Positions 9,612 through 26,267 of a stretch of DNA of 61,706 nt are shown here, one piece after another (positions within the stretch are counted from its first letter, which is position 1; each line of letters starts with the position of its first letter). Under the pieces are notes generated by a model that did not search any database, had not been told where the DNA came from, and was given only the letters and a program-made list of their open reading frames with translations. A program made the translations under genes and the position numbers. Origin of the DNA: Bacteroidales bacterium (lineage in GTDB: Bacteria > Bacteroidota > Bacteroidia > Bacteroidales > Tenuifilaceae). The stretch spans positions 1 to 61,706 of the forward strand of contig JACABB010000005.1 in NCBI GenBank assembly GCA_013376985.1, read 5' to 3'.

Positions 9612-10277
9612 ATGGTGTCTTCTATTCTGTTACAAAACATTCAACAACCGGTTGTTACCCAACATGCTGAGAATATGTTCCAAATTATAATGAAAGGTGG
9701 TTGGATTCTTATCCCAATATTTTTCCTTTCGTTGGTAAGTTTCTGGGTAATATTCGAGCGTTGGACAATACTCAAGCGTGCATCAAGAACCCAGAATTTA
9801 GTTAGTACAATCAACCCAATGCTAAAAGAGGGTAAACTGGATTTGGCCATCAATACCTGCGAGGCCACAAATCAGCCAGTTGGTAAGGTTTTAGCTGCGG
9901 GGCTTCACACAATGGGCTTTACAATCAGAGATATTCAGGATGCAATGGAGGCGGAAGCACACCAACAAATAGACTCGCTAAGTCGTGGAATTAACTACCT
10001 TGGAATAATTGCAACCATTGCACCTATGTTCGGGTTCTTAGGAACAATATTCGGCGTTATTAAAATATTCTACAATATTTCCCTAACCGATAACATTAGC
10101 ATTGGGATTATTTCTGGTGGTTTATACCAAAAGATGGTTTCATCCGCTTCGGGATTACTTGTTGGTATCATTGCTTTTGCAGGCTATCACCTCTTAAACT
10201 CTAAAATCGATAGAATTACATCGATGATGGAAAAGCAGTCCAATGAGCTAATGGCTCTCCTTCGTAGTCGTGGATAA
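9612..10277 (+). CDS. exbB: ExbB/TolQ/MotA-family proton channel
   Basis: A 221-residue inner-membrane protein with three hydrophobic segments (about 25-50, 120-145 and 160-185). It has the family signature from GINYLGIIATIAPMFGFLGT to VSSASGLLVGIIAFAGYHLL. With ExbD it forms the proton-driven motor that energises TonB-dependent outer-membrane transport, or the Tol system. The ExbD-like gene follows 25 bases later and a terminator follows that, so the two form a bicistronic unit. No TonB gene is adjacent, so assignment to Ton rather than Tol rests on the usual Bacteroidota pattern. Confidence 0.88.
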   Translation: MVSSILLQNIQQPVVTQHAENMFQIIMKGGWILIPIFFLSLVSFWVIFERWTILKRASRTQNLVSTINPMLKEGKLDLAINTCEATNQPVGKVLAAGLHTMGFTIRDIQDAMEAEAHQQIDSLSRGINYLGIIATIAPMFGFLGTIFGVIKIFYNISLTDNISIGIISGGLYQKMVSSASGLLVGIIAFAGYHLLNSKIDRITSMMEKQSNELMALLRSRG

Positions 10278-10302
10278 ATATTAGGAAATTAATTTATAAA
10301 AG

Positions 10303-10701
10303 ATGATACTAAAACGTAAACGTGAGATGCATGCTGAGGTATACACCTCTTCGCTCAACGATATAATGTTTTTCCTGTTGCTGTTCTTCCTAATAATATC
10401 AACCCTTGTAAACCCATCGGTTATTCAGCTTATGCTACCCAAAGCATCAGCCAACGTTCAAAAAGTATCCAAGCAAACCATTAACCTTTCGGTTACAAAA
10501 GAGCTAAACTATTTTCTGAACGATAAGCCAATTCCTTTTGATGCAATAATGCCAAGTATTCAAAAATTAGCTCCAAACCCTGAGAACACAACAGTAATCC
10601 TTCGGGCTGATAGAACCATCCAACTACAAGATTTGGTTTCAATTTTGGATATAGGCAACCAACTACATGTAAAAATGATTCTTGCTACGCAAAAGGATTA
10701 A
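10303..10701 (+). CDS. exbD: ExbD/TolR-family biopolymer transport protein
   Basis: A 132-residue protein with a short cytoplasmic N-terminus, one transmembrane helix (about residues 16-36, IMFFLLLFFLIISTL) and a periplasmic domain. The Asp in SLNDIMFFLL just before the helix is the conserved proton-carrying residue of the family. The periplasmic part (VTKELNYFLNDKPIP, VILRADRTIQLQDLV) fits ExbD/TolR. It is co-transcribed with the ExbB gene upstream. Confidence 0.87.
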   Translation: MILKRKREMHAEVYTSSLNDIMFFLLLFFLIISTLVNPSVIQLMLPKASANVQKVSKQTINLSVTKELNYFLNDKPIPFDAIMPSIQKLAPNPENTTVILRADRTIQLQDLVSILDIGNQLHVKMILATQKD

Positions 10702-10730
10702 AGAACGATATTTATTTCAAACATACTGAG

Positions 10731-10759
10731 CCATCCAGCAATTACTGGATGGTTTTTAT
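10731..10759 (+). terminator. Intrinsic terminator after exbBD
   Basis: Perfect 8-bp stem CCATCCAG (10731-10738) / CTGGATGG (10745-10752), followed by TTTTTATTTT. It separates the motor genes from the secreted-protein cluster downstream. Confidence 0.82.
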
Positions 10760-10831: not shown

Positions 10832-13315
10832 ATGACTTACAATTCTAAAGCAATCATTTGGTTTTATTTACTTCTTCTGATATCATTAAATTCCTTTGCC
10901 GATGGTATTCAATTTGGGTCGCCAATTCAACTTGCAACAGATATGCTTTTTACCGAGGGCCCTGCATGGTATCCCGATGGTTATTTGGTTTTTAGTGATA
11001 TTGATGGAAATGTTATATATAAATGGAGTGAAGCTAATGGACTTGAAACTTTTGCTTCACCTTCGGGAAACTCAAGTGGAATTGTTTGTACAAAGAACAA
11101 TGATTTTGTATTATGCAGGCAGGGTACTCGCGATATTGCTCGAATGAGTTCATCAGGAGTGATTGCACCGTTATTATCTCAATACAAAGGAAAAAAGTTT
11201 AATAGCCCGAATGATCTTGAATTAAGCTATTTGGGTTCAGTATACTTCACCGATCCCGACTATGTTGTTAATGCTGCCGATCGTGAACTCAAATATGAAG
11301 GTTTATTCTGCATTCCCTATAATAAAACTGAAGCCGTTCTGCTCGATAGTACATTGGCTAGACCCAAGGGTCTCACTTTTGCCAGCGATTGGCGTACTCT
11401 ATACGTTTGTGAAAGTAGCACCAATACTATCTACTCATACAATTTACGAAATGAGTATCAAATCCAAGATATAACAAAAGATAAAAAGGTTTTCCTAAAA
11501 GTCACTGGCAATGAGGAGATTGATGGAATTACCTCAGATATCCTAGGAAACATCTATGTTGCTTTTGGTGATGGTGGAATAAAGATATTCGATAAGGATG
11601 CCAATGCCGTTGGGCAAATTACATTTCCTATAACAGAGAAGGTTCGTAACCTCTGCTTTGGTGGTAAGTACAGCAATATCCTTTTTGTAACCGCAGGCAA
11701 ATCCTTGTATAAAGTAGATATTAGACTTTATGGCGATTTTGTTGCATCGGGGCTACTAGGTGTGCCTACCAATAAATCGGTTGTGTTCAATGCGCTTTCC
11801 GATAAAACGCTGGAGGCATATATTGCCTATGGCACATCGGATGGCAATTTTACAAATCAAACATCAACCCAAGAATACCCTGCAAATATTCCTATGGAGA
11901 TAATAATTGATGGTTTGAGTTGGGATACACAGTACTACTATCAGTTATTTTATAGAGTTAAAGGGGAAACTACTTTCAAATCAGCAACAATGGGGCAATT
12001 TCACACGCAGAGAGCAACTGGCGAGCAATTTTCTTTTGCAGTGGAGGCCGATCCGCATTTAGATGAAGGCTCAAACTATACAACTTTTCGCAATACCCTC
12101 CAAAATGCGCTTAACCTGAAACCAGATTTTCTTATTGATCTTGGAGATAATTTCTTAACAGAGAAATTTCCAATTCCAGATAACTACTATATCGAGCAAC
12201 GTAACTTAATCTATAGAAATTTTTGGGATAAGGTTTGCTCATCGATGCCGCTATTTATTGTGCTTGGCAATCATGAAGGCGAGTTAGGATGGCTAAATTA
12301 TAATCAACCAGATGATGTCTTTAATCTAGCAACTTCAATACGCAAAATCTACTACCCAACTCCTGAACCTAGCGATTTCTATTCTGGTAATGAAACTATC
12401 TATCCCTTTGTAGGTAAGCGCGAAAACTACTATGCTTGGAATTGGGGTGATGCTCTTTTTGTGGTCATCGATCCTTATTGCAATACAATGGCAAAAACAT
12501 CCGATCCTTGGGGTTTCACTCTTGGCAAAACGCAGTACGATTGGTTTAGGAAAACACTTGAGGAGAGCAATGCTAAGTTTAAGTTCGTTTTTGCTCATCA
12601 ATTAGTTGGTGGCGATAATCTTGGCCGTGGGGGAGCCGAAATAGCGGATTACTTCGAAAATGGTGGAAAGAATGCTGATGGAACCTATGGCTTTGATGCA
12701 AAACGCCCAGGGTGGGGAAAACCATTGCACCAAATTATGGTTGAGAATGGGGTTCAAATCTACTTTCATGGGCACGATCACTTCTATGCAGAACAGCCCA
12801 AAGATGGCATTATATATCAGGAAGTTCCTCAACCTTCCTTTCCTGCATATACCGTTGCTAATAATGCCCAAACATGGGGCTATGTAAGTGGAACAATTAT
12901 TCCAAGTTCAGGGCATCTAAACGTTAAAATTCTTGGCGATAGCGCACAGGTAGACTATATCGGGGGATATCATGTTAACAACCCATCGCCGGGGTTAACC
13001 AACGGCGTAAGTCGTAGAACTTACTATGTAAAGGCTAAATCAATAAATACAGGGGTTGATTTGCCAGTAAAGAAAAGTAACAGCATTGAGGCTTATCAAT
13101 CAGGGGGCTATCTTTTCCTAAAATCATTCCAAAATATTCAAGTTCAAATTACTATATACTCAGCTACGGGACAATGCATGGGAATTTTGCATCAGGGAGT
13201 AATGCCCTCAGGCACATCGGTATATAAAATTCCCGATAATATTAGTAGCGGCTTATACTTAGTGAATATTAAATCAACCGATTTTATGAAAACCATAAAA
13301 ATAATTTTAGTATGA
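10832..13315 (+). CDS. SMP-30/gluconolactonase-like propeller fused to metallophosphoesterase, T9SS cargo
   Basis: An 827-residue secreted fusion. After a signal peptide (about 24 residues) comes an SMP-30/gluconolactonase-like beta-propeller (about 28-305) with the expected metal ligands in TEGPAW, NSPNDLELS and EEIDGITSD. A fibronectin-like linker (about 310-395) leads to a purple-acid-phosphatase-type calcineurin domain (about 400-690) with EADPHL (DxH), DLGDNF, GNHEGE, FAHQ and GHDH. The last ~70 residues are a T9SS type A sorting domain (VQITIYSATGQ to MKTIKIILV). The phosphoesterase half is clearly paralogous to the next gene, whose ATG overlaps this stop (ATGA). The substrate is unknown; the product is expected at the cell surface or outside the cell. 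Confidence 0.85.
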   Translation: MTYNSKAIIWFYLLLLISLNSFADGIQFGSPIQLATDMLFTEGPAWYPDGYLVFSDIDGNVIYKWSEANGLETFASPSGNSSGIVCTKNNDFVLCRQGTRDIARMSSSGVIAPLLSQYKGKKFNSPNDLELSYLGSVYFTDPDYVVNAADRELKYEGLFCIPYNKTEAVLLDSTLARPKGLTFASDWRTLYVCESSTNTIYSYNLRNEYQIQDITKDKKVFLKVTGNEEIDGITSDILGNIYVAFGDGGIKIFDKDANAVGQITFPITEKVRNLCFGGKYSNILFVTAGKSLYKVDIRLYGDFVASGLLGVPTNKSVVFNALSDKTLEAYIAYGTSDGNFTNQTSTQEYPANIPMEIIIDGLSWDTQYYYQLFYRVKGETTFKSATMGQFHTQRATGEQFSFAVEADPHLDEGSNYTTFRNTLQNALNLKPDFLIDLGDNFLTEKFPIPDNYYIEQRNLIYRNFWDKVCSSMPLFIVLGNHEGELGWLNYNQPDDVFNLATSIRKIYYPTPEPSDFYSGNETIYPFVGKRENYYAWNWGDALFVVIDPYCNTMAKTSDPWGFTLGKTQYDWFRKTLEESNAKFKFVFAHQLVGGDNLGRGGAEIADYFENGGKNADGTYGFDAKRPGWGKPLHQIMVENGVQIYFHGHDHFYAEQPKDGIIYQEVPQPSFPAYTVANNAQTWGYVSGTIIPSSGHLNVKILGDSAQVDYIGGYHVNNPSPGLTNGVSRRTYYVKAKSINTGVDLPVKKSNSIEAYQSGGYLFLKSFQNIQVQITIYSATGQCMGILHQGVMPSGTSVYKIPDNISSGLYLVNIKSTDFMKTIKIILV

Positions 13316-14964
13316 AGACAGCACTAGTGTCTTTTGGAATTTTGCTGCTATCTAGTATGGGATTCTCTCAGCAGATGACTGAAATTCTTGGGCGACCCAC
13401 CAATAACTCAATTACTGTTAGTGTTTTATTCGATAGCTCCGTGGATGTTTATTTTGAATATGGTACAGCCCAAGGAAGTTATTCCTTATCAACAATCATT
13501 TCAACATGCTCTGCTGGCGAACCCACAGAAATAAACCTAACAGGTTTGCAATCGGGAACACGTTATTACTATAGAACAAGGTATAGGAAAACAGGTACAA
13601 GCACCTATTTGGCAAGTGATGAACACACATTTGTTACCCAGAGGAAAAAAGGTAGTACGTTCAGGTTTATCATTGAAGCCGATCCTCATCCTTATGATAA
13701 AAAGGGTTGTTGGAACTTGTGGAATATTGCTCTAGCAAATCAGCTTAAAGATACAGCCGACTTTATGCTCGATTTAGGCGATACTTTTGGCGATGATCAT
13801 AATCCATTTACAATAACAAATCAGGAGGAGAAGCAATTACACTTCAATTGTCGAAGTTTTTTTGGTAAAGCATGTCATTCACTACCATTATATCTATGTA
13901 TAGGAAACCATGAGGGCGAAAGCGGTTATTACTTACTGCAAACACCTCCAAACAATCTTGCAACTTACGCAACACTATGGCGAAAATATTATTATCCAAA
14001 TCCTTTCCCCGATGGATTCTATTCAGGTAATATCGCTGAAGAAGCAAGCGGGATTGGAAAGCCCGAGAACTATTATGCTTGGGAGTGGGGCGATGCACTT
14101 TTCATAGTATTAGATGCATATAGATACTATACTGCAAACGCCAAACCTCGTAATTGGGATTGGACGATTGGAAAAACACAGTACGATTGGTTTAAGCAAA
14201 CGCTTGAGAATAGCACTGCAAAGCACAAATTTGTATTTGCACATCATGTTTTAGGCGAAACAAGAGGTGGAGTTGGTGTTGCTTCGCTTTGCGAATGGGG
14301 CGATGTTGCAAATTTCGAAGCCAATCGCCCTGGTTGGGGAGGAGTGCCTTTGCATCAGCTAATGGTAAATAGTAAGGTTGATATTTTCTTTCAGGGTCAC
14401 GACCATATTTATGCTCGAGAAGAGAAGGATGGTCTTATATATCAAACAGTGCCAATGCCAAGCGACTCAACATATATAATTGGCATGAGAGACAATGGCG
14501 ATGCTTTCACTGGAGTAAAACTTGCAGGAGCGGGTCATTTAAGGGTAACCGTTTCATCGGATAATGTTACCGTTGATTACATAAGTGCTGTTTTACCTGC
14601 CGATGAAACAGCTACATCAAAAAATGGAGAAATTGTTTATTCCTATAATAGTATCGGAATCACTTCTGTAAATAATAGCACAGATTTTTATTCAGAAAAC
14701 AAACCGAATTGGACTCTCTTTCCCAATCCAGCAGCCGATTATGTTAATATATCCTTAAATCAACCTACTGATAAAGATTTACTTGTTCAGATAATCAATA
14801 TCGATGGAAAAGTTGTTAGACAAGTCGCTATTTCTGGTAGAACAATCAACCTAAAACTAAATGATAATGCAGGTCATAGACTAAGTACTGGTGTTTATTT
14901 AGTAAAACTTTTTGCAGGTGGTAATTACGTTTCATGTAAAAAAATGGTTGTGAAATCATTCTAG
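13312..14964 (+). CDS. Purple-acid-phosphatase-like metallophosphoesterase, T9SS cargo
   Basis: A 550-residue secreted protein: signal peptide (MKTALVSFGILLLSSMGFSQ), an N-terminal Fn3-like domain (about 22-110), then a calcineurin-like metallophosphoesterase domain. The motifs are EADPHP, DLGDTFGDDHNP, GNHEGE, FAHH and GHDHIYA, so the dinuclear metal site looks complete. The C-terminus (LFPNPAADYVNISL to CKKMVVKSF) is a T9SS type A sorting domain. It shares long blocks with the preceding gene (YYAWxWGDALF, GKTQYDWF, RPGWG) and starts inside that gene's stop codon. This indicates a tandem duplication and translational coupling. Confidence 0.88.
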   Translation: MKTALVSFGILLLSSMGFSQQMTEILGRPTNNSITVSVLFDSSVDVYFEYGTAQGSYSLSTIISTCSAGEPTEINLTGLQSGTRYYYRTRYRKTGTSTYLASDEHTFVTQRKKGSTFRFIIEADPHPYDKKGCWNLWNIALANQLKDTADFMLDLGDTFGDDHNPFTITNQEEKQLHFNCRSFFGKACHSLPLYLCIGNHEGESGYYLLQTPPNNLATYATLWRKYYYPNPFPDGFYSGNIAEEASGIGKPENYYAWEWGDALFIVLDAYRYYTANAKPRNWDWTIGKTQYDWFKQTLENSTAKHKFVFAHHVLGETRGGVGVASLCEWGDVANFEANRPGWGGVPLHQLMVNSKVDIFFQGHDHIYAREEKDGLIYQTVPMPSDSTYIIGMRDNGDAFTGVKLAGAGHLRVTVSSDNVTVDYISAVLPADETATSKNGEIVYSYNSIGITSVNNSTDFYSENKPNWTLFPNPAADYVNISLNQPTDKDLLVQIINIDGKVVRQVAISGRTINLKLNDNAGHRLSTGVYLVKLFAGGNYVSCKKMVVKSF

Positions 14965-15015
14965 TAACCCGATTCTAAAAACTAAAACATAAACTAAATT
15001 ATAAACCCATTGATT

Positions 15016-16809
15016 ATGAAAAAAATACTTTTACTAATTGGCTTTGTTTTCTGGACAGTCTCAATTTTTGCTCAGGAATGTTTTATGACTCTAACTGAGA
15101 CAAGGTATTGGGATGAATCAAAAGCCTATAATGGTTATACTCTTTTTGGAACAAGAGGTGTAACCTATTTAATTGATATGGCAGGGCATGTTGTGCATAC
15201 GTGGCCCATTGGCACAAATCCTCGATTAACAGAGGCAGGTACGTTGCTTGATGCAGTTGGAGGCAATCCAAGCAATTCAAACGTTTGGAAAGAGCTCGAC
15301 TGGAATGGAAATGTTGTGTGGCAATATACCGAAACACGATCGGGGTACTATCCACACCACGATTTTGAAAAAATTTACAATAAAAAGTTGAGTGACTCAA
15401 CCTTTATTTACATTGCGAACAAAGATTTAACCTCAGCCCAGTGTATTGCCGCTGGATGCAATCCATCAAATAATTACACTGGAGCACAAATGGATGTTAT
15501 TGTTGAGGTTAACAAGAGCGGTACTGTTATTTGGGAATGGTCATTTTTCGATCACGTTGTTCAGGATATCGATGCAACGAAATCAACCTATGGTGCAATT
15601 AAGGATAATCCAGGCAAAATCAATTTGAACCTACGCGGAAACCCTGTTAAAAGCGATTGGCTGCATTGCAACTCCCTAGATTACAATCAAGATCTCGATT
15701 TAATTGTTATTAACTCAGTACATGGTGAGTTTTACGTTATTGATCATGGTAATACATTCGTAGCAAACGACCCAACAAGTAGTAAAGCACTTGCTGCAAG
15801 TAGTGCAGGTGATTTTCTTTACAGATTTGGCGATCCTGCAAAATACAATCAAGGCGATCCCCCTTCAGTTCTCGATAATTGGGAGAAGGCAACCGCTGGG
15901 CATAAACAAATTGGCGGAGCGCATAATATTCAATGGATAAAACCAGGGCTACCCGGAGCAGGACATTTTCTGATTTTCAACAATGCTGAAAACCTTTTTG
16001 AGTTAACACCCCAATCTTACATTTTTGAGATAAACCCATACCTAAACTCAGCAGGTATTACAACTAGTCAATTCGTGAATCCTCCAACAGCTGGGTATAT
16101 CATTAAAAACTCGCCCAATTCAAATCTTATGAAGGAGAAAAAGAACGTATCAAAGCAGATAGTATGGTCGTACTCCAGTAAAAATAACACCTCCTTCTAT
16201 AGCACAATTGGCTCAAGCGCACAACGATTACCTAACGGAAATACACTCGTTTGTTCTATGAATGACGGTCACTTTTTTGAAGTTTCACCTAGCGATACTT
16301 CTATTGTTTGGGAATACATTAATCCAATGACTAGAGATGGTATAAAAAGAATCAAAGTAGATAACTACCCAACTTACAATGGTGTTTTTAGAGCATATAG
16401 ATATTCGAAAGATCATCCTGCACTCGTTGGGCATGATTTAACACCAGGAGATGCCATAACTGGTTTTGATCCTGATTACTACACGCCTGAAACTATTACA
16501 TCTACAAAGAATAACGAGGAGTATCTTCAACCAAGTAGTGTATTAAATCAGAATTATCCCAATCCTTTTACGTATAGCACAACAATTGATTTTGAAATAG
16601 ATAAAAGAAGATCGGTTAATGTTGTGATTTTTGATTTGTCGGGTCGTCAGATTAAAACACTTGTTGATAAGAACTTACTTGCTGGAAATTACAGCTTAAG
16701 TTGGGATGGCACAAATGACAACGGATCGCATGTTGTAAGCGGAATATACTTTTATATTCTAAGAGCCGATAATCAAAAAATTAGTAAGAAGATGATTTAT
16801 AATAGGTAA
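15016..16809 (+). CDS. Arylsulfotransferase-family protein, T9SS cargo
   Basis: A 597-residue secreted protein of the aryl-sulfate sulfotransferase (ASST) family, a six-bladed propeller that moves sulfate between phenolic compounds without PAPS. Family landmarks are an N-terminal NGYTLFGTRGVTYLID blade, PHHDF, WLHCNSLDYN, GAHNIQWIKPG, and RLPNGNTLVC with IVWEY. The conserved histidines of the second and third landmarks are present. A T9SS sorting domain (QNYPNPFTYSTTIDF to SKKMIYNR) ends the protein. I start at the ATG at 15016 rather than the TTG two codons upstream; a signal peptide (to about residue 20, IFAQ) follows. It is paralogous to the gene at 19209. Activity on sulfate esters is inferred from the family only. 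Confidence 0.83.
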   Translation: MKKILLLIGFVFWTVSIFAQECFMTLTETRYWDESKAYNGYTLFGTRGVTYLIDMAGHVVHTWPIGTNPRLTEAGTLLDAVGGNPSNSNVWKELDWNGNVVWQYTETRSGYYPHHDFEKIYNKKLSDSTFIYIANKDLTSAQCIAAGCNPSNNYTGAQMDVIVEVNKSGTVIWEWSFFDHVVQDIDATKSTYGAIKDNPGKINLNLRGNPVKSDWLHCNSLDYNQDLDLIVINSVHGEFYVIDHGNTFVANDPTSSKALAASSAGDFLYRFGDPAKYNQGDPPSVLDNWEKATAGHKQIGGAHNIQWIKPGLPGAGHFLIFNNAENLFELTPQSYIFEINPYLNSAGITTSQFVNPPTAGYIIKNSPNSNLMKEKKNVSKQIVWSYSSKNNTSFYSTIGSSAQRLPNGNTLVCSMNDGHFFEVSPSDTSIVWEYINPMTRDGIKRIKVDNYPTYNGVFRAYRYSKDHPALVGHDLTPGDAITGFDPDYYTPETITSTKNNEEYLQPSSVLNQNYPNPFTYSTTIDFEIDKRRSVNVVIFDLSGRQIKTLVDKNLLAGNYSLSWDGTNDNGSHVVSGIYFYILRADNQKISKKMIYNR

Positions 16810-16845
16810 GTATAACCCTCTTGATCCAATTTAATCCGAAATGGT

Positions 16846-16858
16846 AGTAGGGTGAATT
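16846..16858 (+). promoter_or_regulatory. Shared 13-mer, second copy
   Basis: AGTAGGGTGAATT is identical to 10784-10796. It sits in the 103-base gap before the FGE-like gene and suggests a second internal promoter for the last two genes of the cluster. Confidence 0.4.
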
Positions 16859-16902
16859 GAACTCATGTTGTATTATTTATAAAATACCCAATAAACTTTA
16901 AC

Positions 16903-16908
16903 AGGAGG
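16903..16908 (+). promoter_or_regulatory. Strong Shine-Dalgarno AGGAGG
   Basis: AGGAGG lies 4 bases before the ATG at 16913. Canonical SD sites are rare in front of genes in this window, so this one stands out and fixes the start. Confidence 0.75.
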
Positions 16909-16912
16909 TTGT

Positions 16913-19195
16913 ATGAACTTACATAAAACTCGAATACTAATAGCTATTGTTTTGGGGATATTATCATCTTCAAGCATATATGCTCAAAAGCTAATACCCT
17001 TTAAGCTACCGGATACTGGTCAAACAACCAGCTACACAACCACCAAAGGCGAAGATGCTGACTTTACCATTAATCCCCCTTCGTTAGTTGATGATGGTAA
17101 TGGAACTATTACCGATTATACAACTGGGTTAATGTGGCAGAAAACTGATGGTGGTGAAATGATCTTTGAGAATGCATCCACATATTGTAATAATTTGGTA
17201 CTTGGAGGTTACGATGATTGGCGACTTCCCACTAGCCATGAACTATTTAGTATCAATAACTATAGTGTTTCAAATCCAGCATTAAACTCAACCTACTTTA
17301 CTACAACTGCGGCTGAGTATTGGTGGTCGAGTGATGTAAGAGCCGATGATGCAACCAGCGTTTGGGTTGTAAATTGGGGAGGTGGTGTTGGAGCACACCC
17401 AAAAACTGAAACAATTAGTGCTGGAGGAACAAAAAAGATGCATGTCCGAGCAGTAAGAAGTCTTTACTCAACCACATTCACTGTTGATCATTTTAAAGAT
17501 AATGGCGATGGAACAATCACCGATAATTATACTGGATTGATATGGCAAAAACTCAAATCAACAAGCACATACACATGGGAAGAGGCATTAGCCTACGCAT
17601 CAGGCTTGTCATTGGCGAATAAAACCGATTGGCGAATTCCAAATGTAAAAGAGCTTTACTCCCTAAACGATGAAAAATTACATGCACCCTCATTCAATAC
17701 CGCATATTTTACAAATATCTCATCAGGAAATTTTTGGTCATCAACCACTTTGCCCAATCAAACAACAAAGGCTTGGGATATAAATGTTGATTATGGAATT
17801 GTCTCATACAATGAGAAAACAGTTAAAGAAAATGTGCTGTTGGTAAGGGGTGGAATGGACAATAATTCCTTGAATTTCAAAGAAGCATTTATAACTGGGG
17901 GCGATTTTTCAATGGGCGACCATTTTGGCTTCGTAGATCCAAGCCACCCAAGCGATGAGCTGCCACTGCATAATGTTAAAGTCAATTCGTTTTATATATC
18001 TAAATATGAGACCACTAATCAACAGTTTCTGGCATTTCTAAACTCATCGCTATTAAGCGGTGCAATTGAAGTAAGAAATAATGCGGTTTATGCAACTGGT
18101 GGTAGCGATATCTACTGCTACACAAACCAGTTTGCATCGTATTACAGTATTGGCTATGATGGAAAGGTGTTTTCGATTGTTGATTTTAGAGCCAACCACC
18201 CAATGGTTGGGGTAATGTGGAGCGGTGCAGCTGCATTTTGCAATTGGCTGAGTGCACAGAATGGCCTTCAATCGTGCTACAATCTTACAACTTGGGTATG
18301 CGATTTTACTAAAAATGGTTATCGGCTTCCAACCGAGGCCGAATGGGAGTATGCAGGGCGTGGAGGACAAACCAACCCTTACTATAATTACCCTTGGGGA
18401 AACGATCAGGATATTACCAAAGCGAATTGGCCCGATTCAAAAGATCCTTACGAAGGAACAACCGAGGCATCATACCCTTTCACAACACCTGTAGGCTTCT
18501 ACGATGGCTCTCTTCACCTAAAATCCGAATATAGCTGGCCGGGGAGTGCTGTTTCATACCAAACTACCAGCGGTGCAAATGCTTTTGGAATTTACGATAT
18601 GGCAGGAAATGTTTGGGAGTTAATTAACGATTGGTATGGTCAAAATTATTATAGCACCAGTCCTTACGATAACCCCAAAGGCCCTGATGTTGGATTCACT
18701 ATGCCCGATGGGAAGCAATATCGCGGAATGCGAGGTGGAAACTGGTACAACGGCTACAACATTACAGGGGGAAGCGTAAACGATGGGCATTCAAGAGTTT
18801 CGAATCGGAATCCATCCTATTACCGTGGGCCACAAGATCCCAACCATCCATGGTATCATATTGGTTTCCGAGTAGCACGAAATTACGATAACTCATCAAC
18901 AGGAATTACTGAAACAAAAGCCAATGGATCTGCGGATATTATTCTTTACCAGAACTTCCCCAATCCATTTAGTTCAACCACAACAATACAGTTTTCTTTA
19001 CTAAAATCGGGTAGTGTAACCCTTAAAGTCTATAATCTATTGGGACAATTGGAGGCAACAATAGTGAATGAACGACTTAATCAAGGGTTGTACAGCTATC
19101 AATTTAATGCCGATAATTTTCCAACAGGAGTTTATTCATACCAACTTCAGATTGATAATCAACAATCAATTAAAAAAATGATAATAATTAAATAG
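16913..19195 (+). CDS. DUF1566 doublet plus FGE-like (SUMF1) domain, T9SS cargo
   Basis: A 760-residue secreted protein. A signal peptide (about 24 residues) is followed by two DUF1566/Lcl-like repeats. Each has GNGTITDYTTGLMWQK or DGTITDNYTGLIWQK, a DWRLPT or DWRIPN motif and a WWSS or FWSS motif (about residues 60-185 and 190-310). A formylglycine-generating-enzyme/SUMF1-like domain follows (about 325-660: GGDFSMGD, YETTNQQFLAFLN, YRLPTEAEWEYA, FGIYDMAGNVWEL, HIGFRVARN). The end is a T9SS domain (QNFPNPFSSTTTIQF to IKKMIIIK). In the FGE domain the RGG segment reads RGGNWYNG with no following cysteine. The paired catalytic cysteines of true FGE are absent, so a binding role is more likely than formylglycine synthesis. 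Confidence 0.83.
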   Translation: MNLHKTRILIAIVLGILSSSSIYAQKLIPFKLPDTGQTTSYTTTKGEDADFTINPPSLVDDGNGTITDYTTGLMWQKTDGGEMIFENASTYCNNLVLGGYDDWRLPTSHELFSINNYSVSNPALNSTYFTTTAAEYWWSSDVRADDATSVWVVNWGGGVGAHPKTETISAGGTKKMHVRAVRSLYSTTFTVDHFKDNGDGTITDNYTGLIWQKLKSTSTYTWEEALAYASGLSLANKTDWRIPNVKELYSLNDEKLHAPSFNTAYFTNISSGNFWSSTTLPNQTTKAWDINVDYGIVSYNEKTVKENVLLVRGGMDNNSLNFKEAFITGGDFSMGDHFGFVDPSHPSDELPLHNVKVNSFYISKYETTNQQFLAFLNSSLLSGAIEVRNNAVYATGGSDIYCYTNQFASYYSIGYDGKVFSIVDFRANHPMVGVMWSGAAAFCNWLSAQNGLQSCYNLTTWVCDFTKNGYRLPTEAEWEYAGRGGQTNPYYNYPWGNDQDITKANWPDSKDPYEGTTEASYPFTTPVGFYDGSLHLKSEYSWPGSAVSYQTTSGANAFGIYDMAGNVWELINDWYGQNYYSTSPYDNPKGPDVGFTMPDGKQYRGMRGGNWYNGYNITGGSVNDGHSRVSNRNPSYYRGPQDPNHPWYHIGFRVARNYDNSSTGITETKANGSADIILYQNFPNPFSSTTTIQFSLLKSGSVTLKVYNLLGQLEATIVNERLNQGLYSYQFNADNFPTGVYSYQLQIDNQQSIKKMIIIK

Positions 19196-19200
19196 GAGGG
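19194..19200 (+). promoter_or_regulatory. Shine-Dalgarno AGGAGGG overlapping the upstream stop
   Basis: The TAG stop of the FGE-like gene (19193-19195) shares its last two bases with AGGAGGG, which lies 8 bases before the ATG at 19209. This suggests coupled translation of the two genes. Confidence 0.7.
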
Positions 19201-19208
19201 CCCATACC

Positions 19209-20888
19209 ATGCTTAGAACACAAATTTCAAAGACATTGCTTGTTATCTTAATGTCTCTGTTTGCTAATACCATGTATGGGCAAACAAAAACTGTTGGATT
19301 AATGCTTAACAATACCTCAAAAGTATTCAATGGGTATACGTTGTTTTCTCCCAAGCAGTATACCGCAACGTATTTGATAAATAACGAGGGACGAGTTGTA
19401 CACAAATGGACAAAAAGTATCTACCCTCCAGGACAATCGGCATACCTGCTTGAGAATGGACACCTCCTTCGTACATGTATGACTACTGGTAAACTAAGCA
19501 GTGGAGGTGGTGAAGGGGGAAGAGTAGAAGAGTATGATTGGGATGGAAACCTAGTGTGGGAATTGGATTATTCCACCGATACCTACATGCAACATCACGA
19601 TATTCATATCCTACCAAATGGCAATATAATAATGCTAGTAATTGAGAAGAAAACCTATGCAGAATGTATTGCCGCAGGTTTTGATCCCAGCAAATTTCAA
19701 CCCGATATTGCCCAGAAAGGAATGATGGTCCCCGATTATATTGTTGAGATAAAGCCAACCTACCCTTCGGGTGGAACAGTTGTGTGGGAATGGCACACAT
19801 GGGATCATCTTATTCAGGATTTCGATAATACCAAACTTAACTACGGAACACCATCAAGCCATCCAGAGCTAATCGATTGTGATGGTGATAAAAGAAATCT
19901 TCCTGCTTTTTGGAATCACATGAACTCCATCGACTACAACGCAACTTTCGATCAAATTGCCGTAAGTGTTCGGGGGAATAGTGAGGTTTGGATTATCGAT
20001 CATAGCACCACAACCGCTCAGGCTGCTGGTCATACAGGAGGTTTAAGGGGGAAAGGTGGCGATTTATTGTATCGTTGGGGAAACCCAGTATGCTATGGGG
20101 CTGGAAATGCAAGTAACCAACGATACTATGAGCAGCACGATGTGGAATGGATTCCAGCTGGTTACCCAGGAGCGGGAAACATGACATGTTTTAATAATGG
20201 CTTAGGTCGTTCATCCCTTTACTCAACGGTTGATGAATTTACACCAAATGTTGATGCCAATGGGAATTACGCTTCGGTAACAGGAACAGCATACAGCCCT
20301 GCAAACTTTACATGGACATACCAAGGAACTATTGCAGCGCCCCTTTATTCGGAGAATATTTCGGGTGCCAATCGTCTGCCGAACGGAAACACTATTATAT
20401 GCTCTGGTACAATTGGCAGATTTATAGAGGTTACTACAACTGGCGAAATTGTTTGGGAGTATATATGCCCTGTTCAAAAAACAGGTCCAATGGTACAAGG
20501 CACTTTACCCGATGCAGATCCTGCTCGGGCAGGCGAAACAATGAACTCAGTTTTTAGGGTTTATAAGTATCCCGTTACCTATGCAGCATTCGTTGGGAGG
20601 GATTTAACACCTGGCGATTTAATTGAGATTAGCCCCACCACTTCTGTTGAGGATAACCCCAGTTCTACAAATGAGATACAGTGCTACCCTAACCCGTTTA
20701 CGAATAGAATAAACTTAAAAAACACAATTGGGCAGGAAACTTTTGAGCTATTTAATACAATAGGAAAAACTGTTTGGGCTGGAATAGCGGTTGAGCAGCA
20801 AGACTTTTCCCTATTAGCCCCTGGGGTTTACTTTTTAAACATTAAATCGTCCAATTCGCTCAAAACAGTAAAACTCATTAAACGCTAA
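19209..20888 (+). CDS. Arylsulfotransferase-family protein, T9SS cargo (second paralogue)
   Basis: A 559-residue secreted ASST-family propeller with the same landmarks as the gene at 15016: NGYTLFSPKQYTATYLINNEGRVVHKW, MQHHDIHILPNGN, HMNSIDYN, EQHDVEWIPAGYPGAGN, RLPNGNTIIC and EIVWEYICP. A signal peptide ends at about residue 25 (MYGQ). The C-terminus (CYPNPFTNRINL to LKTVKLIKR) is a T9SS type A sorting domain. It is the last of five same-strand T9SS-cargo genes. The two ASST paralogues are well diverged, so they may act on different phenolic acceptors or sulfated donors; that is inference. Confidence 0.83.
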   Translation: MLRTQISKTLLVILMSLFANTMYGQTKTVGLMLNNTSKVFNGYTLFSPKQYTATYLINNEGRVVHKWTKSIYPPGQSAYLLENGHLLRTCMTTGKLSSGGGEGGRVEEYDWDGNLVWELDYSTDTYMQHHDIHILPNGNIIMLVIEKKTYAECIAAGFDPSKFQPDIAQKGMMVPDYIVEIKPTYPSGGTVVWEWHTWDHLIQDFDNTKLNYGTPSSHPELIDCDGDKRNLPAFWNHMNSIDYNATFDQIAVSVRGNSEVWIIDHSTTTAQAAGHTGGLRGKGGDLLYRWGNPVCYGAGNASNQRYYEQHDVEWIPAGYPGAGNMTCFNNGLGRSSLYSTVDEFTPNVDANGNYASVTGTAYSPANFTWTYQGTIAAPLYSENISGANRLPNGNTIICSGTIGRFIEVTTTGEIVWEYICPVQKTGPMVQGTLPDADPARAGETMNSVFRVYKYPVTYAAFVGRDLTPGDLIEISPTTSVEDNPSSTNEIQCYPNPFTNRINLKNTIGQETFELFNTIGKTVWAGIAVEQQDFSLLAPGVYFLNIKSSNSLKTVKLIKR

Positions 20889-21149: not shown

Positions 21150-21360
21150 AACGTAAACTCAATGTAAACTGTCATCCTGAGCGGAGCGAAGGATCTTAGA
21201 TGCTTCACTCCGTTCAGCATGGCAAGAAACAGTATGCTAGGGAAACTTCAATCCCTATCCTTAATAGTAATGATGAATTGTAATATGGATCCATTGTCAT
21301 TGACTGCGCCGAGTTCGCAAGCTCGGTTCTGAGCGTAGCTAAGGATCTGTCGTTTCGATT
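21150..21360. repeat. Two dispersed palindromic repeat units
   Basis: This gene-free stretch of about 320 bases holds two units of the GAGCGAAGCGAAGGATCT type. The first (about 21170-21225) runs GTCATCCTGAGCGGAGCGAA... and closes with GCTTCACTCCGTTCAGCATG. The second (about 21295-21350) carries CGAGTTCGCAAGCTCGGTTC and GAGCGTAGCTAAGGATCTG. Both match the interior of the copy B element at 8415-8505. A weak terminal-repeat look-alike (AACGTAAACTCAATGTAAA) begins near 21151. Confidence 0.6.
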
Positions 21361-21450
21361 TAAGAACAAGGAATAACCATTTATGATGCTTCGTGTCTTG
21401 TCCTAAAACGGGTAATTCCCTCCGCTCAGGGCCGGGTTGGAATGGAATCT

Positions 21451-22305
21451 TTACTTTATTGTCAATTTGAATTTCTGAGTAAATTTTTGCGAGGAGAATT
21501 TTTTATTACTGTTTGAACCGCCCATACCCTCTTCGGATCTCATACCCCTGCGATTATGACCACCTGATCCCATTCTCCCGCCACCTCTCATACCTCCACC
21601 TGGTCTCATACCTCCACCCTCTGAGCCTCCTTCAGGCATGCCTTGAGGTCGATTATTTCCAGCAAGATTAGGCCTATTCATCTCATTTACCTCTACTTTC
21701 AGGTTCAAAACACTCATCAAATCTTTCTCCACAAAATTATCTCCAAAATATTCTGTAAATGGGATAATTATGTCATAATACATCTCTTGCTTGTCATTCC
21801 AATCTATTCCAACAAAGACAAAACTGTTTGGATCAACTGAAATAAATCCATTTTCAGTGGCAAAACCTTTTAGTTTAAGGAAAGACTTCTTAAATTTAAA
21901 CTCATTTCGAAGCTTATTCACGTCCTGCTTTCTCATCAATTGAGGCTCTATTTCAGTTGATGGATCTTCATTGTTATTAGGAAGAGGATAACTTATCGAA
22001 GTTTTTATTTTCTTAGTTCCCTTTGATGATAGGTTTACAACCATTCCCGATTTCAAAATCTTCAATTGTTCAAATTTGTCTGTGATCTTAAAACTCAGGT
22101 AAATATTATTGCTATCGTTAGCAATTCTAAAAAACATATTCGTGTTGGAATCGTAAAGATTATAAAGTATTCGACTTTCACTTTCAGCAATATTTCCATT
22201 AACAATTTTTGGCTTTACAGTCCATTCCGATATGGTAATGTCCGATTGGGCAATAGATCTAAGTCCAATCAAGCATAGTACAACTAGCAGGTAATTTGTC
22301 TTCAT
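21451..22305 (-). CDS. Secreted hypothetical protein with Gly/Arg/Met-rich tail
   Basis: A 284-residue protein with a clear signal peptide (MKTNYLLVVLCLIGLRSIAQ). The N-terminal half (about 20-110: ITISEWTVKPKIVNG, MFFRIANDSNNIYLSFKITD) resembles CBM9-like/DOMON-type domains in which a beta-sandwich starts with this pattern. The C-terminal ~60 residues are low complexity, made of GGG, RGGGR, PGGG and GM units, and end in a Lys/Phe-rich strand. I start at the ATG at 22303-22305, since the signal peptide begins there; an in-frame ATG lies four codons upstream. Function unknown. Confidence 0.7.
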   Translation of the reverse strand: MKTNYLLVVLCLIGLRSIAQSDITISEWTVKPKIVNGNIAESESRILYNLYDSNTNMFFRIANDSNNIYLSFKITDKFEQLKILKSGMVVNLSSKGTKKIKTSISYPLPNNNEDPSTEIEPQLMRKQDVNKLRNEFKFKKSFLKLKGFATENGFISVDPNSFVFVGIDWNDKQEMYYDIIIPFTEYFGDNFVEKDLMSVLNLKVEVNEMNRPNLAGNNRPQGMPEGGSEGGGMRPGGGMRGGGRMGSGGHNRRGMRSEEGMGGSNSNKKFSSQKFTQKFKLTIK

Positions 22306-22432
22306 GTTGCAAATCATTAAATAGATTAAAACCTAATTCATTACGAATAAAGAGGCAAGATAAGACTGTATTAAACAAAATTCTTGATTAACTAGAAGTA
22401 TTTCAAGATTGTATAGACAAATAACCTTTATT

Positions 22433-25448: not shown

Positions 25449-26267
25449 CTAGGAAATGACTAATGAGCGCATTGAAATTGAACCCAAATCAAAAGATTCG
25501 TTGAAATAGCTCACATGTTCACTCTTTTCTTGTAAAGCAAGAATATAGAGTAAAGGAATAAAATGATCGTAGGAGGGATGTGCCATTACAGATATCGATC
25601 CTAATTGTTGAAAATTTATTACCCCTTGATGGTTTGAATTATCGATAAACGTTTTGATTGCTATATCGAACTCTTCAGCCCAATCGTAAGTTTTATTTGC
25701 AAAATTCATAGTGCCGAGATTGTGTACAATATTTCCGCTTCCAAGGATTAAAACACCTTTATCCCTTAGAGATCTTAATTGCAATCCTAAATCATAATGG
25801 AATTGGGGGGATTTGGAATAGTCAATGCTTAGTTGGTAAACGGGAATATCCGCTTTTGGAAACATAGGAAGCAATACGGACCATGTACCATGATCGAGGC
25901 CCCAATCAAAGTCCGATTGTATTGTGGGATTATTTACCATTCTTATGGTCTCATTTGCAAATGTTGGAGAACCTAATGCTGAGTATTCCTGTTGGTACAA
26001 TTCATTTGGAAATCCACCAAAATCATAAATGGTTCTGGGTCTTTCCATTGCAGTAACTTTTGTCGTACTATGTGTAATCCAGTGTGCCGAGATTGAGAGT
26101 ATTGCGCTAGGTTTTGGTAGAGTTTTTCCTAGTTCCTGCCAACTTCTTCTATATTGATTGTCCTCAATAGCGTTCATAGGACTTCCATGCCCAATAAACA
26201 AAGTTGGCATTTTATCGGTGCTTTTTAAATCTTTTAATGATTGAAGTATTGATAAACTTGGTATCAT
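25449..26267 (-). CDS. ygiD: DODA-type extradiol dioxygenase (YgiD/LigB family)
   Basis: A 272-residue cytoplasmic class III extradiol ring-cleavage dioxygenase. Conserved histidine motifs are visible: FIGHGSPMNA (about 23-32), SAHW (about 59-62), DHGTWSVL, GSGNIVHNLG (about 165-174) and MAHPSYDHFIPLLY (about 230-243). E. coli YgiD opens the ring of L-DOPA between carbons 4 and 5. The natural substrate of bacterial members is usually unknown. It stands alone; the nearest upstream gene is CvfB on the same strand, 68 bases away. Confidence 0.9.
   Translation of the reverse strand: MIPSLSILQSLKDLKSTDKMPTLFIGHGSPMNAIEDNQYRRSWQELGKTLPKPSAILSISAHWITHSTTKVTAMERPRTIYDFGGFPNELYQQEYSALGSPTFANETIRMVNNPTIQSDFDWGLDHGTWSVLLPMFPKADIPVYQLSIDYSKSPQFHYDLGLQLRSLRDKGVLILGSGNIVHNLGTMNFANKTYDWAEEFDIAIKTFIDNSNHQGVINFQQLGSISVMAHPSYDHFIPLLYILALQEKSEHVSYFNESFDLGSISMRSLVIS

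What the first reader, a model, noticed from the sequence alone, without database searches (positions are those of the whole stretch)
10832..20888. Five-gene cluster exporting two phosphoesterases, two arylsulfotransferase-like propellers and an FGE-like protein through T9SS
Seen: five consecutive plus-strand genes, each with a signal peptide and a C-terminal T9SS type A sorting domain, with overlapping or short junctions and terminators bounding the upstream side. Known: ASST enzymes move sulfate between phenols; purple-acid-type phosphoesterases cleave phosphate esters. Inference: this could be a surface or extracellular system that remodels sulfated or phosphorylated aromatic compounds or glycans. 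I know of no described pathway with this gene set.
Basis: partly seen in the sequence, partly recalled or inferred. Interest (0 to 1): 0.72.

Follow-up and report, generated by a model that had tools for sequence, protein, structure and literature searches.

The report
Widespread surface sulfate-transfer gene module
Five neighbouring genes for exported proteins in this Bacteroidota genome belong to a gene module, built around two sulfotransferase-like enzymes, that recurs in bins of many bacterial phyla, mostly from freshwater lakes, and may give this enzyme family a natural setting that can be tested.

Summary
The five genes are real, co-directional, tightly packed, and each passes NCBIfam's T9SS-tail cut-off; the genome has PorU. 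They are not a one-genome curiosity. Of 80 kept loci with a G5 relative, 66 are at least 50% identical; a G4-type FGE-fold gene lies within 8 kb in 58 of these (16 of 17 with full flanks), the second ASST in 40, a metallophosphoesterase in 38; below 50%, FGE in 2 of 14. All 248 neighbours counted share the strand. Bin titles name ten phyla. FGE and ASST share one reading frame in 17 of 80 loci; their distances co-vary (r 0.83). AssT's nucleophile His436 matches G5 His310 (87 of 87) and, through G5, G3 His305 (36 of 40); both models' best PDB hits are AssT and Cpz4. The FGE domain has Asn for the first catalytic Cys in 59 of 59; the phosphoesterases lack the purple Tyr. T9SS tails: 2 of 2 Bacteroidota/Ignavibacteriota copies scanned, 0 of 6 from other phyla. 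Best reading: a horizontally shared cell-surface module for PAPS-independent sulfuryl transfer. Activity and substrate are not shown.

The parts
10728..10755 (+). terminator-like hairpin after the exbB-exbD pair upstream
   Evidence: 11 pairs, T-rich tail
10832..13315 (+). G1: SGL/gluconolactonase propeller (aa 40-288) fused to calcineurin-like phosphoesterase (aa 402-651), weak T9SS tail (aa 761-826)
   Evidence: closest solved relatives by sequence 3e5z, 3dr2 gluconolactonases
13312..14964 (+). G2: calcineurin-like phosphoesterase with a sub-threshold Pur_ac_phosph_N match and a T9SS tail
   Evidence: no solved relative by sequence up to E 0.1
15010..16809 (+). G3: arylsulfotransferase-fold propeller, second type, with T9SS tail (ATG start probably 15016)
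16913..19195 (+). G4: two Lcl_C (DUF1566) stretches + FGE-fold domain without the catalytic Cys pair + T9SS tail
19209..20888 (+). G5: arylsulfotransferase-fold propeller with conserved AST catalytic residues, T9SS tail

Best explanation
The five genes are the T9SS-exported form of a cell-surface module shared across phyla. Its core is a near-constant pair: an arylsulfotransferase propeller (G5) and an FGE-fold, Cys-less partner (the FGE part of G4), usually with a second sulfotransferase propeller (G3) and one or two phosphoesterases, and with lactonase (SGL), Lcl_C, PBP-fold or sulfatase parts added by lineage. Proposed working: G5 and G3 move sulfuryl groups without PAPS, by ping-pong through a transiently sulfated histidine (His310 in G5, His305 in G3), from aryl sulfates to hydroxyl groups of an extracellular acceptor; the C-type-lectin-like Lcl_C/FGE protein binds and presents the sulfated or phenolic polymer; the phosphoesterases and lactonase cleave other esters of the same material. 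Shown here: co-occurrence, common strand, fusion, co-divergence, export tails, fold match, conserved catalytic residues. Inferred: activity, donor and acceptor, the scaffold role of G4, horizontal transfer, and that the proteins work on one substrate.
For: Co-occurrence: FGE within 8 kb of G5 in 58 of 66 loci at 50% identity or more, 16 of 17 with both flanks at least 8 kb, against 2 of 14 below 50% (1 of 8 with full flanks); 248 of 248 counted neighbours on the same strand. The 15 tree rows outside the 64-row G5 clade (SH-aLRT 99) show no FGE gene in the DNA held. Search from the FGE side: 14 of 393 genomes of the order carry the family at E 1e-60 or better, own included; in the 12 loci fetched, G5 and G3 lie beside it in 12 of 12, a phosphoesterase in 10 of 12. 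FGE and G5 in one open frame in 17 of 80 loci; distance correlation over 54 loci 0.83, 0 of 2000 permutations as high. Catalysis: the G5 profile hits AssT 3elq at 2.4e-8, with AssT H356/N358/R374/H436 over H237/N239/R255/H310; H310 and H237 87 of 87; G3 H305 36 of 40, H219 38 of 40. Fold: G5 model pLDDT 91.4, best PDB hit Cpz4 2.4e-16, then AssT; G3 pLDDT 82.9, best AssT 6.9e-14. AST mechanism and active-site list: PMC13426309 (section 6 whole; passages of 5, 8, 9). The Lcl C-terminal region binds sulfated glycosaminoglycans (PMC11162425, passages). Phosphoesterase metal motifs nearly invariant. Cys-type sulfatases near the module in 10 of 80 loci (two of them confirmed by Pfam, the rest by cluster or motif).
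Against: No activity, expression or chemistry is known for any member; the loci are almost all metagenome bins. G3 has Val at the AssT Arg374 position (36 of 40), 4 of 40 lack His305, and the G3 profile by itself matches AssT only at E 0.03. Fold matches are at 12-15% identity with TM-scores 0.40-0.60 and rmsd 5-14 A. L052 has full flanks, 66% identity to G5 and no partner gene. SGL, Lcl_C and phosphoesterases vary: 13, 32 and 38 of 66. The own-genome PF00884 proteins number three; the two read lack C/S-x-P-x-R, so sulfatase-based sulfur use is not evident in this genome. Of the ten other protein clusters present in four or more loci, the nine scanned hold no sulfate importer or aromatic pathway.
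Confidence: 0.5

Rival explanations
1. Nutrient-scavenging surface hydrolases: the propellers act mainly as sulfate-ester hydrolases and the phosphoesterases as phosphatases, together releasing S, P and carbon from dissolved organic matter.
For: Two complete phosphoesterases, a lactonase-type domain and Cys-type sulfatases near the module in 10 of 80 loci fit a hydrolytic set. 52 of 80 bin titles resemble sample names of the stratified-lake dataset (PMC8121793, passages).
Against: Characterised AST enzymes transfer by ping-pong to an acceptor (PMC13426309, section 6). Among the recurring flank clusters scanned there is no phosphate or sulfate uptake gene; regulators found are ECF and LytTR types.
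Confidence: 0.22
2. Detoxification or stress response: an ECF sigma / small protein / Metal_resist-LTXXQ sensor set switches on surface enzymes that sulfate toxic phenolics or quinones (humic compounds) or build a metal-binding sulfated matrix.
For: An ECF sigma gene heads the module in 11 of 80 loci, with a Metal_resist/LTXXQ protein in 10 of those 11 (clusters; Pfam on one ECF and two sensor members). The window has a LigB-type aromatic dioxygenase 4.6 kb downstream.
Against: The window has no ECF or sensor gene beside the cluster; 6 of 80 loci have a histidine kinase/LytTR pair instead or as well; the LigB cluster recurs in one other locus (L039) of 84.
Confidence: 0.15
3. The propellers have left sulfotransfer: their six shared, nearly invariant histidines bind a metal or another ligand, and the module is a structural or adhesive surface complex.
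For: H129, H130, H200, H237, H265, H310 in G5 (86-87 of 87 each) and the matching six in G3 (36-40 of 40), more than the AssT site lists; Arg374 lost in G3. G4 is a Cys-less FGE fold, as are ring proteins GldK/PorK, which it also hits (80 bits against a cut-off of 350; their structural role is from the model's description and recall).
Against: AssT His356, Asn358 and His436 are among the conserved residues, and Foldseek ranks sulfotransferases above all other propellers for both models.
Confidence: 0.12

Closest known systems
AssT (E. coli CFT073) with DsbL/DsbI (PMC13426309; PDB 3elq, 3ets, 4p05)
   Same: Propeller with the His356/Asn358/His436 set; PAPS-independent ping-pong mechanism expected; encoded with partner genes.
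   Different: AssT is periplasmic with an N-terminal beta-sandwich and a DsbL/DsbI pair for its disulfide (passages); here the partners are an FGE-fold protein, a second propeller and phosphoesterases, and the proteins carry surface-export tails.
Cpz4, caprazamycin sulfotransferase (PDB 9kf4, 9kf6)
   Same: Best fold match of the G5 model (2.4e-16); per PMC13426309 it prefers sugar hydroxyls of glycosides.
   Different: 15% identity; antibiotic biosynthesis in Streptomyces; no FGE-type partner known to me (recall).
BvAST of Bacteroides vulgatus (PMC13426309)
   Same: A Bacteroidota PAPS-independent AST acting on phenols, with histidine sulfation reported.
   Different: Treated there as a less similar member of cluster I; no such gene context in the passages read.
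Formylglycine-generating enzyme (6muj, 2q17) and GldK/PorK
   Same: G4 shares the FGE fold (3.7e-19 to 6muj; GldK 80 bits).
   Different: No catalytic Cys pair; joined to Lcl_C, PBP or ASST parts; far below the GldK cut-off of 350.
Lcl C-terminal domain (DUF1566), PMC11162425
   Same: G4 holds Lcl_C stretches (176 bits).
   Different: No collagen stalk seen; the sulfate-binding lysines were not tested here, and the paper says they are little conserved among Legionella species.

Membership tests
PAPS-independent arylsulfotransferase (ASST) | PF05935 match over the curated cut-off | tested here: met
   G3 47.8 and G5 76.8 bits, cut-off 24.2
PAPS-independent arylsulfotransferase (ASST) | nucleophile His436 and His356/Asn358 | tested here: met
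   G5 H310, H237 87 of 87, N239 86 of 87; G3 H305 36, H219 38, N221 39 of 40. G3 H305 is placed through a G3-G5 alignment; the G3 profile's own match to AssT is weak (E 0.03)
PAPS-independent arylsulfotransferase (ASST) | Arg374 | tested here: inconclusive
   G5 R255 74 of 87; in G3 Val in 36 of 40, i.e. not met for G3
PAPS-independent arylsulfotransferase (ASST) | His252 and Thr501 | tested here: inconclusive
   HHD at G5 129-131 is a likely counterpart of His252 but was not aligned to AssT; Thr501 falls on Ile384 beside a conserved Ser385
PAPS-independent arylsulfotransferase (ASST) | ASST propeller fold | tested here: met
   top 11 Foldseek rows for G5 and top 10 for G3 are Cpz4/AssT
PAPS-independent arylsulfotransferase (ASST) | sulfuryl transfer activity | not testable with these tools
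   needs an enzyme assay
Formylglycine-generating enzyme | catalytic Cys pair (RGGSxxC....C) | tested here: not met
   first-Cys column Asn in 59 of 59; no Cys in window G4 603-668; register set by the RGG motif against the 2q17 sequence shown
Purple acid phosphatase | metal motifs DxH, GD, GNH, H, GHxH | tested here: met
   G1 type 27-28 of 28, G2 type 33 of 33
Purple acid phosphatase | Fe-binding Tyr of GDxxY (motif recalled) | tested here: not met
   G1 L442: Met/Leu/Phe in 28 of 28; G2 G160: Gly/Met/Ser/Phe in 33 of 33
SMP-30/gluconolactonase | SGL family match | tested here: met
   121.6 bits, cut-off 26.3; 3e5z 8.3e-25
SMP-30/gluconolactonase | metal and catalytic residues | not tested
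   not mapped residue by residue
T9SS type A cargo | TIGR04183 tail over cut-off | tested here: met
   5 of 5
T9SS type A cargo | T9SS present in the genome | tested here: met
   PorU model NF033707 1318 bits, cut-off 420, at G000:C9; other components not searched
T9SS type A cargo | signal peptide | not tested
   read by eye only; AlphaFold shows an N-terminal helix in G3 and G5

The most novel reading that the evidence does not exclude
A previously undescribed multi-protein surface system, horizontally shared among some ten phyla, largely in oxygen-stratified lakes, and re-fitted to each lineage's own anchoring route, in which a Cys-less FGE-fold protein is the near-obligate partner of a sulfotransferase propeller (as specificity subunit or as an enzyme of a new kind), and which trades sulfate groups on sulfated or phenolic organic matter: a conserved natural context for the AST family outside antibiotic synthesis.
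Probability: 0.35. Interest if true: 0.82.

Novelty: new variant of a known kind. Interest (0 to 1): 0.63.

Why it matters
[quoted passage not shown] A large AST clade with a near-constant partner, repeated fusions and a habitat signal makes that open question testable: the partner proteins and the lakes point to candidate acceptors and donors. It also names an FGE-fold family with invariant Asn in place of the first catalytic Cys, which fold-based annotation would call sulfatase-modifying.

Tried and rejected
Rejected: G4 as activator of sulfatases (Cys pair absent). Rejected: cluster private to this genome. Rejected as sole explanation: bin contamination, since the loci differ in G+C from 0.30 to 0.70 and carry different sorting parts (T9SS tails in L041, titled Ignavibacteriae, and L045, titled Bacteroidetes; none in six copies from other phyla, one of which, L058, has a Solibacter C-terminal domain). 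Single bins such as L033 could still be misplaced. Plasmid carriage: tblastn of G5 in 72,556 plasmid records gave 24 records, all under 60% identity, the ten listed at 25-29%, so no member of the clade was seen among those listed. Promoter scans were uninformative (47 found, 51.6 expected; 3 Bacteroidetes-type matches on the plus strand of the window, the one between 8.5 and 22.5 kb inside G1). Literature: searches returned 0 papers; one search returned 1 (listing only); one search returned 1,319 on looser terms, and the 20 listed had no occurrence of the enzyme name; one search listed 20 of 35, none titled on such a gene set. PMC11576661 (passage only) was not used.

A first sulfatase motif search missed the Verrucomicrobia-type sulfatases (RCTPSR); that cluster (7 loci) was added by hand to the 4 loci of the motif search, one shared: 10 of 80.
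Full report
OBSERVATION. Domains: G1 SGL + calcineurin-like phosphoesterase; G2 calcineurin-like phosphoesterase; G3 arylsulfotransferase (ASST); G4 two Lcl_C stretches + FGE fold; G5 ASST. All five pass the T9SS type A tail model, G1 narrowly (25.5 bits, cut-off 23). The genome (5.26 Mb, 85 contigs) holds PorU and two PF05935 matches at E 0.001 or better, these two. It holds five PF03781 matches, so an FGE beside an ASST is not expected by density.

DISTRIBUTION NEAR HOME. Among 60 relatives, the strong long matches to G5 (37-46% identity) lie in 3 genomes of the same order (G033, G051, G052) and in none of 4 genomes of the genus or 22 of the family, some of them incomplete; nearly all other rows are sorting-tail hits. 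The four loci taken from those 3 genomes have no other module gene. Searching the order with the G4 FGE profile at E 1e-60, 14 of 393 genomes match, the own one included. I fetched 12 loci from 12 of the 13 others (G384, a cut contig, left out): G5, G3 and Lcl_C are present in 12 of 12, a phosphoesterase in 10 of 12, SGL in 0 of 12. One of these (L124) has the contig length and layout of L028, so this set overlaps with the next one. The cluster has G+C 0.393 against 0.35 on both sides. Patchiness and composition fit horizontal acquisition but do not prove it.

DISTRIBUTION FAR. A scan of 84,980 species genomes with G5 gave 118 relatives, the best 80 kept; a few come from one bin (L029 and L044; L057 and L078) or are near-copies (L041 and L042; L064 and L065). 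tblastn of seven domains: at 50% identity or more, FGE within 8 kb in 58 of 66, G3 in 40, phosphoesterase in 38, Lcl_C in 32, SGL in 13; with both flanks at least 8 kb, FGE 16 of 17, G3 14, phosphoesterase 14. Below 50%: FGE 2 of 14, phosphoesterase 2, Lcl_C 2, G3 1. All 248 neighbours counted are on the strand of G5. Eight of the 66 lack FGE; seven of those have under 2 kb of DNA on at least one side of G5; L052 has full flanks and truly lacks it. In a quick tree of 79 G5 rows the FGE-linked ones fall in one set of 64 rows (SH-aLRT 99); the 15 rows outside show no FGE in the DNA held. The tree tool warns of long branches among those 15. Distances of G5 and FGE correlate at 0.83 over 54 loci (Mantel 0 of 2000); common descent of the organisms would add to this. 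Loci with an FGE open frame (57) are titled Bacteroidota 16, Verrucomicrobiota 14, Ignavibacteriota 9, Hydrogenedentes/Hydrogenedentota 8, Lentisphaerota 2, Planctomycetota 2, one each Thermodesulfobacteriota, Chloroflexota, Acidobacteriota and Armatimonadota, and 2 unassigned. In the tree Bacteroidota and Ignavibacteriota interleave (6 changes each, at least 4 forced by starred branches); the tool notes that bins and paralogues can cause this without transfer.

FUSIONS AND FLOATING PARTS (open frames by my own caller). FGE with G5 in one frame: 17 of 80 loci. Lcl_C with FGE as a two-part protein: 17 of 80 plus the window, and two more in larger fusions. SGL with phosphoesterase: 3 plus the window. 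G3 with SGL, G3 with phosphoesterase, SGL with FGE and three larger fusions occur once each. A PBP-fold domain follows FGE in many Verrucomicrobiota-type proteins (PF01161, 81 bits in L094; 25 open frames hit), follows SGL in L053 and is a free-standing gene in L037. Cys-type sulfatases lie near the module in 10 of 80 loci. Heads of the module: ECF sigma in 11 of 80 loci, Metal_resist/LTXXQ proteins in 10; a histidine kinase/LytTR pair in 6. The window has neither.

EXPORT. T9SS tails are found in both FCB-type copies scanned (L041, L045); six copies from other phyla have none. L053 copies look like lipoproteins by eye; L058 ends in a Solibacter C-terminal domain. So the catalytic parts are kept while the sorting part changes, which suggests that a place outside the cytoplasm is part of the function.

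CHEMISTRY. A profile of 31 of 89 G5 pieces hits AssT at 2.4e-8; AssT His356, Asn358, Arg374, His436 fall on H237, N239, R255, H310; the H436N mutant entry has N in that TQH. Conservation: H310 and H237 87 of 87, N239 86, R255 74 of 87; G3: H305 36, H219 38, N221 39 of 40, the Arg position Val in 36 of 40. A profile of 29 of 41 G3 pieces matches AssT only at E 0.03, so G3's residues are placed through G5. G5 and G3 also share H129/H130, H200, H265 and R289 (G5 numbering). AlphaFold models: G5 pLDDT 91.4, G3 82.9; the best PDB hits are Cpz4 and AssT for both, at 12-15% identity, TM 0.40-0.60 and rmsd 5-14 A. The AST mechanism (transient sulfation of His436; site His252, His356, Asn358, Arg374, Thr501) is from PMC13426309, section 6 read whole. 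G4: first-Cys column Asn in 59 of 59, so formylglycine chemistry is not expected; 79 columns are at least 95% conserved over 59 sequences, so the domain is under strong constraint. Phosphoesterase metal motifs are nearly invariant, the purple Tyr absent. Own-genome PF00884 proteins: 3; the two read lack C/S-x-P-x-R, the third was not read.

HABITAT. 52 of 80 titles bear names like the samples of the stratified-lake dataset and 3 are Lac Pavin; the match is by name pattern, of which the passages I saw confirm Loclat, Alinen Mustajarvi, Mekkojarvi, La Plata, Lomtjarnan and Keskinen Rajajarvi (PMC8121793, passages); the other abbreviations are my guess. That dataset has 3640 species-level clusters, at most about 4% of the collection if all were in it, so the share looks high; this ratio is my estimate.

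VERDICT. A conserved, exported, cross-phylum gene module around PAPS-independent sulfotransferase-like propellers with a Cys-less FGE-fold partner. I found no paper describing it in the searches (open-access library only, listings). Its substrate is unknown; sulfated or phenolic polymers are the leading guess, helped by the sulfated-glycan binding of the Lcl C-terminal region (PMC11162425, passages), whose binding lysines are little conserved even among Legionella species.

Noticed in passing
window 25449-26267 (-): LigB-type aromatic ring-opening dioxygenase (85 bits) 4.6 kb downstream; its protein cluster recurs near the module only in L039 (12941-13834) of 84 loci.
   Followed up: partly
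window 9612-10701 (+): exbB-exbD pair directly upstream of the cluster, followed by its own terminator-like hairpin.
   Followed up: no
window 21170-21450: Intergenic GGAGCGAAGGATCT-type sequence that looks like a dispersed genomic repeat (by eye).
   Followed up: no
window 21451-22317 (-): 288-aa exported-looking protein with a Gly/Arg/Met-rich stretch and no Pfam or NCBIfam match.
   Followed up: no
L094 7979-9736, L060 7991-9718, L053 570-2024: PBP (PF01161) domain acts as an exchangeable part: behind FGE, between FGE and ASST, or behind SGL.
   Followed up: partly
L041 4544-6318, L045 474-2217: ECF sigma, small protein and Metal_resist/LTXXQ protein form what looks like a CnrYXH-type head of the module (the likeness is recalled).
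   Followed up: partly
L092, L093, L095, L096, L098: Saprospiraceae-type Bacteroidota carry two tandem G5-like ASST genes, with no FGE partner in the DNA held.
   Followed up: no
L106 5953-12910: A bin titled Euryarchaeota from lake sediment has four ASST-like stretches in a row.
   Followed up: no
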